DNA from: an uncultured Verrucomicrobiales bacterium | Lineage (GTDB): Bacteria; Verrucomicrobiota; Verrucomicrobiia; Limisphaerales; Palsa-1400 | Reading direction: 5' to 3' | Length of the DNA stretch: 42,827 nucleotides | Assembly (NCBI GenBank): GCA_903927905.1 | Contig: CAIYOY010000037.1 | Coordinates: 1 to 42,827 of the forward strand | Shown: one piece after another, positions 2,441 to 5,549 of the stretch | How the letters are laid out: each line of letters opens with the position of its first letter | How positions within the stretch are numbered: position 1 is the first letter of the stretch | Notes under the pieces: generated by a model | Told to the model about the DNA's origin: nothing | Seen by the model: only the letters and a program-made list of their open reading frames with translations | Database searches by the model: none | Program-made: the position numbers and the translations under genes

Positions 2441-2477
2441 GCCCGCTCCGGGAGATCCGGAGCGGGCTTTTGTTTTT
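2441..2477. terminator. bidirectional intrinsic terminator between convergent genes
   Basis: GCCCGCTCCGG-GAGAT-CCGGAGCGGGC perfect 11-bp stem followed by TTTTGTTTTT; A-rich on the other side, so usable by the convergent minus-strand gene. Confidence 0.9.
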
Positions 2478-2485
2478 CCCTCCTT

Positions 2486-4288
2486 TTAATTTTTGGCAAC
2501 GGTGGCGGTGCCGGGGTTCTGCTGTTTAAGCATCACACCCAGCAATCCATCCACCAATCCGCCGTTCGCGCCCTGGCCGGTGACGGAGACATCGGGCACG
2601 ATGCGCACGCCGCGTTCGCCCACAATCTGCATCAACTGCATCAACGTGTAGCCCTGCGCGCCCAGCGATTCCACACCCGCGCGATAGGCTTCCGCTTTCG
2701 CATTACCGATACTGCGGATCGCTTCCGATTCACCCAGCGCTTTCAGGCGCGTCGCTTCCGAGTCGCCCGTCGCCGATTTGATGTGCGCATTGGCCTGCAA
2801 CTCGGCGATGTTCACGCCTTGTTCCGCGCCGACCACTTGTTGCTGGATGTCGGCCAGCGATGTTTGCCGCACCAACTGCTGGCGCTGGATCTGCGCCGCT
2901 TCCTGCACTTCGTAGGTCTTGCGCTGTTCTTCGGCGATCTTGCGATCGGTCTGCGTGGCCATAAGTTGCATCGGCGGATTAATGTCGCCGATGAGCGTGT
3001 CAATGGCCTGCACGTCATACGCGCCGATGGCGACGCGGATATGTTCCGCCGCTTCGACTTGCCGCTGACTGCGCGCGCCAAGGAAGTCAAGCACAGTGTA
3101 ATCCTGCGCGGAATTGCGGAAATAATTTCCGACAATCGGTTGCAAGACGTGGTCCACCAGGTTTTGCATCGAACCGACGCGCGAGATCACCTTCGGCGCA
3201 TCCAGCGCGCCGACGTGGATGATCTGCGACACGTCCAGGTTAAACGCAAACCCATCCCTCGACCGCACGGTGATGGACGACAATTTCGCATCGTAATTAT
3301 GCGATTCCGTCCGCGTCGCCCAGTTCAACACTATATTCGTCGTGGGCACCAACTCCACCTTCATGATGCGGGTGTTGATCGGGTGTTTGCCCGGATACAA
3401 CGGCGATACCCACACGCCTTTGTGGCCGACGTTGACGAGGTCGCCATGTTTGAAGTCAAGGCCGCTGACATCTTCGTGCGCTTTACCGACGAACGAAATC
3501 ACGACGCCGACGTAGCCGATGGGGATATGGACCATCGGCACCTGTTCCACCTGGACAAACCAGGGGTTCAGATTCCACGAGCCGGACAGCAGGATCTGTT
3601 CTTGCAAACCGCGCCGCCCGCCGCCATCCACGAACGCCTGTGCGTTCTGGAAATTGTCATGGACGGCAATGACCGGCCCGGCAATTTCCCCGGCTTCGAT
3701 CGGCGTGCCATCGAGTGTCGTGGCAATTCCGACTTGGTCCGATTCGATTTGCATGATGCGCAAGGAATCGGGCGACATGCCATGCGTGGCGGCATCAGCC
3801 GAAGTGATCACGGTGAACAGCGCGGTGTTGATGCGGTAAGTGCCAGCGGTCAGGATGCCAAGTTGGCGTCCTTTCTCGCCGCCGTTGAGCAGGAACTGGC
3901 GCGCGTCCTGAAAATTGTCGCACGGGACAATTTTGGCGAGGATGCGTTCCGACGGGATGGACGCGCCGGCAGCCGCGACGACCAGGGCGATTTCACCCTG
4001 GGCGACGAGGGTCATCGGCACTTTGTAGATGCGATGCTGCCAGCTCCACAAACCAAAGTGGATGCCCGGCGCGAGGGTGTCTGCTTGATAGCCCGCTTCA
4101 CCATCGAGGGCGATCAATTGGCCGGGCGCAAGATTGCGCGAGGCGAATTTCTTGACGACGATCCCGACTTGGGATTCACGAATGACGACAATGCCCATCA
4201 AGCTAGGACCAAGAATCAACAGGGCCAGGGCCAGGGCGATCCAAACAATTTCTGAGGTGGATAACATGCCGAACATAATTGCGTTCAT
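2486..4288 (-). CDS. SPFH/band 7 (flotillin-like) membrane protein
   Basis: N-terminal TM segment (IVWIALALALLILGPSLMGIVVIRESQVGIVVKKF), SPFH-like body, Ala/Glu/Gln-rich C-terminal coiled coil (EEQRKTYEVQEAAQIQRQQL...AEAYRAGVESLG). Start set to MNAIMFGM at 4288 with a CGGAG upstream; the longer ORF to 4510 runs through a structured leader. Confidence 0.88.
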   Translation of the reverse strand: MNAIMFGMLSTSEIVWIALALALLILGPSLMGIVVIRESQVGIVVKKFASRNLAPGQLIALDGEAGYQADTLAPGIHFGLWSWQHRIYKVPMTLVAQGEIALVVAAAGASIPSERILAKIVPCDNFQDARQFLLNGGEKGRQLGILTAGTYRINTALFTVITSADAATHGMSPDSLRIMQIESDQVGIATTLDGTPIEAGEIAGPVIAVHDNFQNAQAFVDGGGRRGLQEQILLSGSWNLNPWFVQVEQVPMVHIPIGYVGVVISFVGKAHEDVSGLDFKHGDLVNVGHKGVWVSPLYPGKHPINTRIMKVELVPTTNIVLNWATRTESHNYDAKLSSITVRSRDGFAFNLDVSQIIHVGALDAPKVISRVGSMQNLVDHVLQPIVGNYFRNSAQDYTVLDFLGARSQRQVEAAEHIRVAIGAYDVQAIDTLIGDINPPMQLMATQTDRKIAEEQRKTYEVQEAAQIQRQQLVRQTSLADIQQQVVGAEQGVNIAELQANAHIKSATGDSEATRLKALGESEAIRSIGNAKAEAYRAGVESLGAQGYTLMQLMQIVGERGVRIVPDVSVTGQGANGGLVDGLLGVMLKQQNPGTATVAKN

Positions 4289-4354
4289 AATAATCTCCGA
4301 TGTTCTTCGCCCGCGCCAAGGCGCGACAAAGAAAGGTTTACAACGGGGTGATCG

Positions 4355-4374
4355 CGAAAAATCCGCACACGCGG
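4355..4374 (-). terminator. terminator-like hairpin in the leader of the SPFH gene (candidate riboswitch expression platform)
   Basis: minus strand ATCCGC-GTGT-GCGGAT followed by TTTTT, between the aptamer-like region and the start codon at 4288. Confidence 0.7.
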
Positions 4375-4400
4375 ATCTTGAGAAGATCGCCCTTCCAAGT

Positions 4401-4540
4401 GCCGACGAGGTTAGCTGACGGGCTGGGTCTTGAAAGTGACCCTGACAACGGTTCACCGCTGTCATGCGCCCCATCCCCGAATTCATTTCGAGGAACTGGT
4501 TCCCCCGCATCCGACTCCAGGAAGGAAGCCGGATTTAGGC
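4401..4540 (-). ncRNA. c-di-AMP (ydaO/yuaA-type) riboswitch aptamer
   Basis: minus-strand RNA GCCUAAAUCCGGCUUC...GGAGUCGGAUGCGGGGGAACCAGUUCC...GGGGAUGGGGCGCAUGACAGC...GUUGUCAGGGUC..AAGACCCAGCCCGUCAGCUAACCUCGUCGGC has the conserved blocks of the ydaO class (AAUCCG, GGGGGAACC, GGGG-GxxAU, CCCGUCAGCUAACCUCG..GGC) in the right order, with closing GCC/GGC. Confidence 0.85.
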
Positions 4541-4700
4541 TGCTATGGGAACACTACACCGGAAGGAACGGTTGTCAAATGCGTGGCGGAAGTGGTTGTG
4601 CCAGAACCCTTTTATAAAGGAAGACAACCCTTTGAAACGCCACAGGACTGTCACCAAAATGTCGTTTGCGTTTTTGTCAAGTTGAGCGAAGGTAGAAGAT

Positions 4701-5549
4701 ATGTTTAATGTCCAATTTCCTCCTGGCGTAAACGTAACCGGGCAACAACTGGCTTTAGCCGGAAGGCTCACTGACGACTTGTTGCTTGATTCGTTCCATC
4801 CTAAACCAACCCCATCGTTGGAATGTCACGTTGCTTCCACCATTGACGATTTCCTGGCCATTCAGGATTTGCGACGATTGGTTTTTTATGCCGATGTCGA
4901 AGGTGAATTGGAGGATGAGATGCCCGCCTATTTATATGAGGAAAACCGTTTCGACGAACATTGTGACCATCTGGTCATCCGCGACCAGTCGAAGGGAAAA
5001 ATCGTGGCTTCGTGTCGGTTGCAATCGGGCTTGAGAACATTGGAAGGGATGGAATTTTCCGCCGCGCAGGAATTTGATCTGGAACCTTTGGATCGTCATT
5101 GCAAGGAAACGACGGAGTTCAGCCTGATGTGCCTGCATCCGGAATATGATTCCGACACGTTGCTGGAACTTTTGTATCAGGGCATGTTGGATTACGCCCG
5201 GCACAATAAGGGACGATATTTGTTGGGTTGCGTCCCGCTGGAATCTCACGATGCGGCCGTCGGCACGGCGGTATTTGCCGCCTTGGGGCGTCACCATCTT
5301 GCATCCTTGGAATGGCAAACCAGTCCGTGGCTGGCCTGGGCTTGCCCGTTGTGTTCGATGTCGGCGACTGCAGCCGAATATCCCCAACAGTTGCGTCATC
5401 ATCTTGCTCGCGGCGCTAAAATCTGCGCGCCCCCGGCGATTGATCGCCGGTTCAACACCGTCAGTTTTCTGGTGATGCACGATCTGGAAATGCGCCCCGT
5501 TCAATCCACCGCCACGGTGATCTCACGACCGGTCTTGGCGGACTCGTAA
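4701..5549 (+). CDS. GNAT-like N-acyltransferase of the OlsB/PEP-CTERM N-acyl amino acid synthase type
   Basis: 282 aa; pattern LRRLVFYADVEGE...ENRFDEHCDHLVIRD..KGKIVASCRLQ...EFSLMCLHPEYDSDTLLELLYQGMLDYARHNKGRYLLGCVPLE resembles ornithine-acyl-ACP acyltransferase-like proteins. Confidence 0.7.
   Translation: MFNVQFPPGVNVTGQQLALAGRLTDDLLLDSFHPKPTPSLECHVASTIDDFLAIQDLRRLVFYADVEGELEDEMPAYLYEENRFDEHCDHLVIRDQSKGKIVASCRLQSGLRTLEGMEFSAAQEFDLEPLDRHCKETTEFSLMCLHPEYDSDTLLELLYQGMLDYARHNKGRYLLGCVPLESHDAAVGTAVFAALGRHHLASLEWQTSPWLAWACPLCSMSATAAEYPQQLRHHLARGAKICAPPAIDRRFNTVSFLVMHDLEMRPVQSTATVISRPVLADS

What the first reader, a model, noticed from the sequence alone, without database searches (positions are those of the whole stretch)
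4289..4560. c-di-AMP (ydaO-type) riboswitch controlling an SPFH/flotillin-like gene
Seen in sequence: the minus-strand leader carries the ordered ydaO/yuaA blocks (AAAUCCGG, GCGGGGGAACC, GGGGCGCAU, a paired GACAGCGG..CCGUUGUC, CCCGUCAGCUAACCUCGUCGGC), then a hairpin ATCCGC-GTGT-GCGGAT-TTTTT before the ATG at 4288. Established: ydaO-class RNAs bind c-di-AMP and mostly act as OFF switches on cell-wall, osmolyte and K+ genes. Inference: here c-di-AMP would control an SPFH membrane-scaffold protein, suggesting a role in envelope or osmotic homeostasis. The ORF track start at 4510 is probably wrong because it translates the riboswitch.
Basis: partly seen in the sequence, partly recalled or inferred. 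Interest (0 to 1): 0.8.

Follow-up and report, generated by a model that had tools for sequence, protein, structure and literature searches.

The report
c-di-AMP riboswitch controlling vault-like SPFH protein
A known kind of RNA sensor for the bacterial signal c-di-AMP, which normally turns potassium importers off, here sits in front of a gene for a large membrane-anchored cage-type (SPFH, vault-like) protein, and this pairing is conserved across the Verrucomicrobiota, which points to an unreported structural partner of potassium and turgor control.

Summary
Observation confirmed. Rfam RF00379 (c-di-AMP, ydaO/yuaA) matches window 4551-4385(-) full length: 60.9 bits, cut-off 38, E 8e-12. The genome has a CdaA-type cyclase. 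In SPFH orthologues the aptamer stems covary (26 of 39 pairs with compensatory changes).

The pairing is not local. RF00379 lies upstream of 34 of 34 close Verrucomicrobiota orthologues, and of 0 of 26 Cyanobacteria/Chloroflexota/other orthologues. Across 236 genomes of the class, 65 sites control K+ importers (KimA-like APC, Kup, KdpA, TrkH; about 42) or SPFH proteins (19, in three protein groups). In two Opitutae the SPFH gene is directly followed by a KimA gene.

The protein is a membrane-anchored SPFH protein. Its predicted beta-repeats match major vault protein repeats, its SPFH core prohibitin/erlin/stomatin cages.

A conserved block that can pair with aptamer core or Shine-Dalgarno suggests a translational OFF switch (moderate family-level, weak window-level support). 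True start: ATG 4288.

Best reading: low c-di-AMP (K+ shortage, osmotic upshift) turns on a vault-like membrane cage together with K+ uptake. A cage enclosing importers is inference. No held paper links c-di-AMP to SPFH proteins.

The parts
4385..4551 (-). c-di-AMP (ydaO/yuaA, RF00379) riboswitch aptamer, full length; invariant core GCGGGGGAACC at 4508-4498
   Evidence: cmscan 60.9 bits, E 8e-12; covariation in 26 of 39 pairs among orthologous leaders
The U run 4361-4357 is found in the window only
   Evidence: fold of the window platform; ortholog leaders keep the stem but lack the U-tract; compensatory changes in the stem
4343..4354 (-). conserved switching block (CGAUCACCCCGU; family consensus GGUCUCCCC), complementary to the aptamer core and, less perfectly here, to the Shine-Dalgarno
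   Evidence: alignment A2; duplex test against core, SD and tail; partition-function comparison
4304..4332 (-). hairpin between the switching block and the Shine-Dalgarno
   Evidence: fold of the window platform; a hairpin at the same place in relatives
4295..4298 (-). Shine-Dalgarno GGAG in the conserved context CAUCGGAG
   Evidence: conserved immediately upstream of the aligned starts in orthologues
2486..4288 (-). membrane-anchored vault-like SPFH protein, 600 aa, ATG start 4288 (not 4510)
   Evidence: Band_7 E 1.9e-25; orthologues; AlphaFold model pLDDT 80
4196..4285 (-). N-terminal hydrophobic helix, residues 2-31 (membrane anchor)
   Evidence: sequence and model helix 2-31
3341..4189 (-). 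predicted beta-repeat region, residues 34-316, similar to the MVP R1-R7 repeats; pseudo-repeat 'DNFQdaqaFlxgGgxRGxQxxiLxxGxYrINpxlFxV' seen twice
   Evidence: Foldseek against MVP, including the N-terminal R1-R7 crystal structures 3gf5 and 3gnf; alignment A1
2978..3337 (-). SPFH domain, residues 318-437
   Evidence: Pfam PF01145 residues 255-467; Foldseek prohibitin/erlin/stomatin at about 3 A
2615..2971 (-). long coiled-coil helix, residues 440-558, followed by a short C-terminal hydrophobic helix (residues 579-590)
   Evidence: AlphaFold model
2441..2467 (.). strong U-tract terminator hairpin between the convergent SPFH and pgl genes; makes the SPFH transcript monocistronic here
   Evidence: 12-pair stem with TTTTGTTTTT; pgl ends at 2433

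Best explanation
The region is a c-di-AMP (ydaO-class) riboswitch that represses a membrane-anchored, vault-like SPFH protein as part of the potassium/turgor regulon of a Verrucomicrobiota bacterium. Shown here: the aptamer, its covariation, its conserved linkage to SPFH genes, the K+-importer regulon sharing the aptamer, and SPFH-KimA operons. Established for the class: c-di-AMP binding switches expression OFF, and c-di-AMP falls when K+ is scarce. Inferred, moderate support: the switch acts mainly on translation. Without ligand the block at 4354-4343 pairs with the aptamer core and the SD is open; with c-di-AMP the core is locked, the block is free to pair with the SD, and ribosome entry is blocked. 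Inferred, weaker: when c-di-AMP falls (K+ limitation, osmotic upshift), the cell makes the SPFH protein together with K+ importers, and it assembles a domed membrane cage that encloses or stabilises K+ transporters or the membrane around them, as stomatin encloses aquaporin-1 and HflK/C encloses FtsH.
For: RF00379 60.9 bits. Aptamer covariation in 26 of 39 pairs. CdaA-type cyclase in the genome. RF00379 upstream on the same strand in 34 of 34 close Verrucomicrobiota orthologues and 0 of 26 other-phylum orthologues; on the protein tree the label needs 4 changes against 32 for shuffles. A second, about 37%-identical SPFH clade (G199, G227, G115, G023) and a third Band_7 family (L108, L117, L120, L123) also sit behind RF00379. 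The other class targets are Kup, KdpA, TrkH and KimA-like permeases. SPFH-KimA gene order in L159 and L172, KimA identified by PDB 6s3k at E 8e-63. Platform: block-core pairing stronger than shuffled in 16 of 20 leaders; SD more open in the full-length fold than in the platform alone in 17 of 22, window 0.58 against 0.27. Structure: MVP and SPFH-cage matches. Stomatin encloses aquaporin-1 and urea transporter (PMC12407830). c-di-AMP OFF control of kdp, with c-di-AMP falling at low K+, is experimental in B. thuringiensis (PMC6488665).
Against: No ligand binding, expression or phenotype data. SD occlusion in the platform alone is not stronger than in shuffles for the window itself (0.62 of shuffles as low) and only modestly so for the family (8 of 22 at 0.1 or less). 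The window alone carries a U5 run after the hairpin, so termination cannot be excluded here. One 72%-identical orthologue (G228:C49) has lost the riboswitch. SPFH orthologues in Cyanobacteria and Chloroflexota work without it, so c-di-AMP control is not intrinsic to the protein. In the window's own genome, 81% complete, no Kup, TrkH or KimA was found and its KdpA has no riboswitch, so a riboswitch-controlled importer partner is not seen there. Oligomerisation and cargo are not tested.
Confidence: 0.75

Rival explanations
1. The riboswitch acts by transcription termination: c-di-AMP lets the hairpin 4379-4358 plus its U run terminate the SPFH transcript early.
For: The window has a 9-bp stem followed by or overlapping UUUUU. 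Termination is the demonstrated mechanism in B. thuringiensis kdp (PMC6488665). A clear U-tract terminator lies after the SPFH gene at 2441-2467.
Against: The homologous hairpin lacks a U-tract in the other leaders aligned. Four of the five U's pair in the stem. Conservation continues beyond the hairpin to a block complementary to the core and to the SD.
Confidence: 0.27
2. The SPFH protein is a general membrane-stress scaffold or chaperone that is merely swept into the c-di-AMP regulon, without direct contact with K+ transporters.
For: Orthologues in Nostoc and Chloroflexota lack the riboswitch. Flotillins stabilise unfolded proteins (PMC11222466, found). The own genome has nine Band_7 domains. 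Most SPFH genes in the class are not beside an importer gene.
Against: Three SPFH groups recruited to a regulon that is otherwise almost only K+ importers, and SPFH-KimA gene pairs, suggest a more specific link.
Confidence: 0.4
3. The RF00379 match is a degenerate or inactive relic.
For: A few positions differ from the Rfam consensus (GGGGCGCAU against GGGGUGAAU).
Against: The same variant recurs in other class members. The aptamer covaries and is kept in 34 of 34 close orthologues. The genome has a CdaA-type cyclase.
Confidence: 0.03

Closest known systems
ydaO/yuaA c-di-AMP riboswitch (Rfam RF00379), e.g. B. subtilis kimA and ktrAB, B. thuringiensis kdp
   Same: Full-length aptamer at 60.9 bits; same regulon logic, with K+ importers as the main targets in this class.
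   Different: Controls an SPFH gene; no conserved terminator, probable translational platform.
Bacterial SPFH proteins (QmcA, HflK/C, FloT/FloA flotillins)
   Same: Band_7/SPFH domain, N-terminal membrane helix, long coiled coil; QmcA is the best PDB sequence match, E 2e-5.
   Different: Twice as long as QmcA; an N-terminal beta-repeat region beyond the part that aligns with QmcA or HflK/C; no NfeD partner gene next to it in the window.
Major vault protein (MVP)
   Same: Best Foldseek matches of the full model, E 6e-13 over about 650 columns; without the coiled coil it still matches MVP including the R1-R7 repeat crystals 3gf5 and 3gnf.
   Different: Membrane-anchored; fewer repeats; no MVP match by sequence in Pfam or PDB. 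Works-like resemblance only; not filed as MVP.
Human stomatin cage around aquaporin-1 and UT-B (PMC12407830)
   Same: SPFH fold; link to osmotic transporters.
   Different: Eukaryotic, no beta repeats; the link to K+ importers here is genomic only.

Membership tests
RF00379 c-di-AMP riboswitch | Covariance-model score above the curated gathering cut-off over the full aptamer | tested here: met
   60.9 bits against 38, model 1-134/134
RF00379 c-di-AMP riboswitch | Stems supported by covariation in orthologous leaders | tested here: met
   26 of 39 pairs with both-side changes kept
RF00379 c-di-AMP riboswitch | Host makes c-di-AMP | tested here: met
   One DAC domain, E 4e-39, in a CdaA-like ORF beside a YbbR-like ORF; gene presence only
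RF00379 c-di-AMP riboswitch | Upstream of and on the same strand as a regulated gene, typically K+, osmolyte or wall genes | tested here: met
   Position; SPFH here, K+ importers elsewhere in the class
RF00379 c-di-AMP riboswitch | Binds c-di-AMP and switches expression OFF | not testable with these tools
   Needs in-line probing and reporters
Transcription-terminating riboswitch platform | Conserved hairpin followed by a U-tract | tested here: not met
   Hairpin conserved; U-tract after it in the window only
Translational (SD-occluding) platform | Conserved anti-SD block with a competing partner in the aptamer | tested here: inconclusive
   Family-level support; weak against shuffles, absent for the window alone
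SPFH / Band 7 superfamily | SPFH domain above the Pfam cut-off | tested here: met
   PF01145 90.4 bits against 23.6
SPFH / Band 7 superfamily | Membrane anchor plus coiled coil | tested here: met
   Helix 2-31 and helix 440-558 in the model
SPFH / Band 7 superfamily | Assembles a ring or dome oligomer | not testable with these tools
   No oligomer prediction or experiment
Flotillin (subfamily) | Closest similarity to flotillins rather than other SPFH proteins | tested here: not met
   Best sequence match QmcA; flotillin structures rank below MVP, prohibitin, erlin and stomatin
Major vault protein | Recognised by vault sequence models | tested here: not met
   Only Band_7 in Pfam; no MVP in PDB sequence searches
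Major vault protein | N-terminal tandem MVP-type beta repeats before an SPFH-like shoulder | tested here: met
   Foldseek to MVP and to R1-R7 crystals, E 1.6e-4 to 6e-13, at low TM-scores

The most novel reading that the evidence does not exclude
Verrucomicrobiota have built a membrane-anchored vault-like cage into the c-di-AMP/K+ circuit: when c-di-AMP falls, the cell assembles SPFH domes with MVP-type repeat walls over newly made KimA, Kup or Kdp importers and thereby controls their stability or activity. This would be the first second-messenger-controlled SPFH microcompartment and a bacterial, functional counterpart of vaults.
Probability: 0.25. Interest if true: 0.88.

Novelty: new member of a known kind. 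Interest (0 to 1): 0.62.

Why it matters
c-di-AMP riboswitches are textbook regulators of K+ importers, osmolyte transporters and wall enzymes. A phylum-wide, repeatedly acquired link to SPFH scaffold proteins points to an unreported structural partner of K+/turgor control. The function of bacterial SPFH proteins is a long-open question; here a known signal and sometimes a specific cargo candidate (KimA, same operon) make it testable in cultivated Verrucomicrobium strains. The vault-like repeat architecture may also bear on the unknown function and origin of MVP.

Tried and rejected
Terminator reading: rejected as the conserved mechanism, kept as a rival for the window. Chance or relic aptamer: rejected. 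Promoter and terminator consensus scans gave no more sites than shuffles and did not help place the start. A recurrent operon partner in all orthologues: none; only SPFH-KimA in three Verrucomicrobiota loci (clear in L159 and L172, N-terminal frame unclear in L148), F1-ATPase upstream in Nostoc (probably incidental), and a Ser/Thr kinase downstream in 26 cyanobacteria. Riboswitch at SPFH genes outside Verrucomicrobiota: none in 26 loci. Literature: no held paper links ydaO or c-di-AMP with SPFH, flotillin or stomatin as regulated genes; the two key catalogues (Block 2010, Nelson 2013) are not held, so an earlier table entry cannot be excluded. Kup, TrkH and KimA in the own genome: not found, inconclusive at 81% completeness.

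Full report
The whole-genome search finds no second copy. The genome, an 81%-complete assembly, carries a CdaA-type diadenylate cyclase beside a YbbR-like ORF, so the ligand is plausible.

The regulated gene starts at ATG 4288. The longer frame from 4510 translates the aptamer and is an accident: the Shine-Dalgarno CAUCGGAG before 4288 is conserved in orthologous leaders while the aptamer lies upstream. The 600-residue product has a Band_7/SPFH domain. It ends at 2486, and a strong U-tract hairpin at 2441-2467 separates it from the convergent pgl gene, so it is monocistronic here.

The host belongs to the Verrucomicrobiota, judged by the nearest named relatives of the SPFH protein. Orthologues of 66-83% identity also occur in Nostoc and other cyanobacteria, Chloroflexota and a few others. 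RF00379 lies upstream on the same strand in all 34 Verrucomicrobiota loci examined (one of them, L167, is titled Bacteroidetes in its record but groups with Verrucomicrobiota here) and in none of 26 loci labelled as other phyla. On a tree of 98 proteins the riboswitch label needs 4 changes against 32 for shuffled labels; it covers the whole Verrucomicrobiota clade with one loss (L077, G228) and appears again in a distant SPFH clade (no riboswitch at L077).

The regulon gives the best clue to function. In 236 genomes of the class, 54 have RF00379. I examined 65 sites. Downstream are KimA-like APC permeases (about 21), Kup (16, two of them behind a small PH-like membrane protein), KdpA (3), TrkH (2) and SPFH proteins (19); four are unassigned. 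Pfam confirms Kup, KdpA, TrkH and Band_7 for representatives. The SPFH targets fall into three groups: the window's type (11), a 37%-identical type (4), and a separate Band_7 lipoprotein-like family (4). So SPFH proteins were probably drawn into the K+ regulon more than once. In two Opitutae (L159, L172) the order is riboswitch, SPFH, KimA on one strand, and the permease is KimA by PDB sequence match 6s3k, E 8e-63. In L148 a KimA-like frame follows too, but its N-terminus is unclear. In the window's own genome Kup, TrkH and KimA were not found, and KdpA is present without a riboswitch; with 81% completeness this is inconclusive.

How the switch acts. Conservation continues into a block, consensus GGUCUCCCC (window CGAUCACCCCGU, 4354-4343). 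This block pairs with the invariant aptamer core GCGGGGGAACC more strongly than with shuffled cores in 16 of 20 leaders, and also with the Shine-Dalgarno. Without ligand, the folded full-length leader pairs the block with the core in the window. In 17 of 22 leaders the Shine-Dalgarno is more open in the full-length fold than in the platform folded alone, which stands for the state with the aptamer locked by ligand (Wilcoxon p 0.0007, not corrected for relatedness); for the window 0.58 against 0.27. Against shuffled platforms the occlusion is only modestly better than chance in the family (8 of 22 at 0.1 or less) and not for the window. I therefore favour a translational OFF switch at about 0.55-0.6, with termination as the main rival. 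The same platform elements recur in KdpA, KimA, TrkH and second-family SPFH leaders.

What the protein is. AlphaFold predicts an N-terminal membrane helix (2-31), about four beta repeats (34-316), the SPFH domain (318-437), a long helix (440-558) and a short hydrophobic C-terminal helix (mean pLDDT 80). Foldseek ranks major vault protein first (E 6e-13, about 650 columns), then prohibitin, erlin, stomatin, QmcA, HflK/C and flotillin cages. A second model of residues 32-440, without the coiled coil (pLDDT 86), still matches MVP, including the crystals of MVP repeats R1-R7 alone (3gf5, 3gnf), while its SPFH half superposes on prohibitin and erlin at about 3 A. TM-scores are low, as expected for repeats in a different curvature, and no vault model matches by sequence. 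I call it vault-like and do not file it as MVP or as flotillin.

Mechanism proposed. Established: c-di-AMP riboswitches of this class switch off K+ uptake genes, and c-di-AMP falls at low K+ (B. thuringiensis kdp, PMC6488665). Shown here: the same aptamer controls SPFH genes across the phylum together with K+ importers (by position and conservation, not by experiment). Inferred: when c-di-AMP drops, the SPFH cage is made with the importers and stabilises, gathers or encloses them or the surrounding membrane. Stomatin cages enclosing aquaporin-1 and a urea transporter in erythrocytes are a precedent for the physical idea (PMC12407830). A general membrane-chaperone role remains possible.

Novelty. 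The riboswitch is an ordinary member of RF00379. Its target is new as far as the held literature shows: searches combining ydaO or c-di-AMP riboswitches with SPFH, flotillin or stomatin returned nothing relevant. Two catalogues that might list such genes are not held. The likely translational platform and the vault-like architecture are additional, less certain points of interest.

Noticed in passing
L108, L117, L120, L123 (first ORF after RF00379): A second, unrelated Band_7 family (about 450 aa, lipoprotein-like N-terminus) also sits behind the c-di-AMP riboswitch; the species seen with it lacked a close match to the window's SPFH type.
   Followed up: partly
L152, L153, L154, L155, L176, L208, L209, between riboswitch and SPFH gene: In some lineages the riboswitch is followed by a small CxxC zinc-ribbon ORF (about 66-92 aa, CPECG...CADCG type) and only then by the SPFH gene.
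   Followed up: partly
L127, L131 (and an ORF in the L213 leader): A small membrane protein resembling a bacterial PH-domain protein (no Pfam hit) lies between the riboswitch and Kup; a possibly related ORF lies between riboswitch and SPFH in L213.
   Followed up: partly
L134 (G039:C61, 1849-4338, minus strand): An 830-aa relative appears to carry extra copies of the beta repeat before the SPFH domain, as if the repeat number varied between lineages.
   Followed up: no
G000:C34, C110, C146, C20 (L221-L224): The genome holds nine Band_7 domains in five places, several in tandem: rich in SPFH proteins.
   Followed up: no
cyanobacterial loci such as L170, L173, L177: The cyanobacterial SPFH orthologues are often followed by a zinc-ribbon Ser/Thr kinase gene (26 loci).
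   Followed up: no
window 4701-5549 (+): The divergent neighbour is a GNAT protein distantly similar to OlsB-type ornithine acyltransferases, well below the curated cut-off.
   Followed up: no
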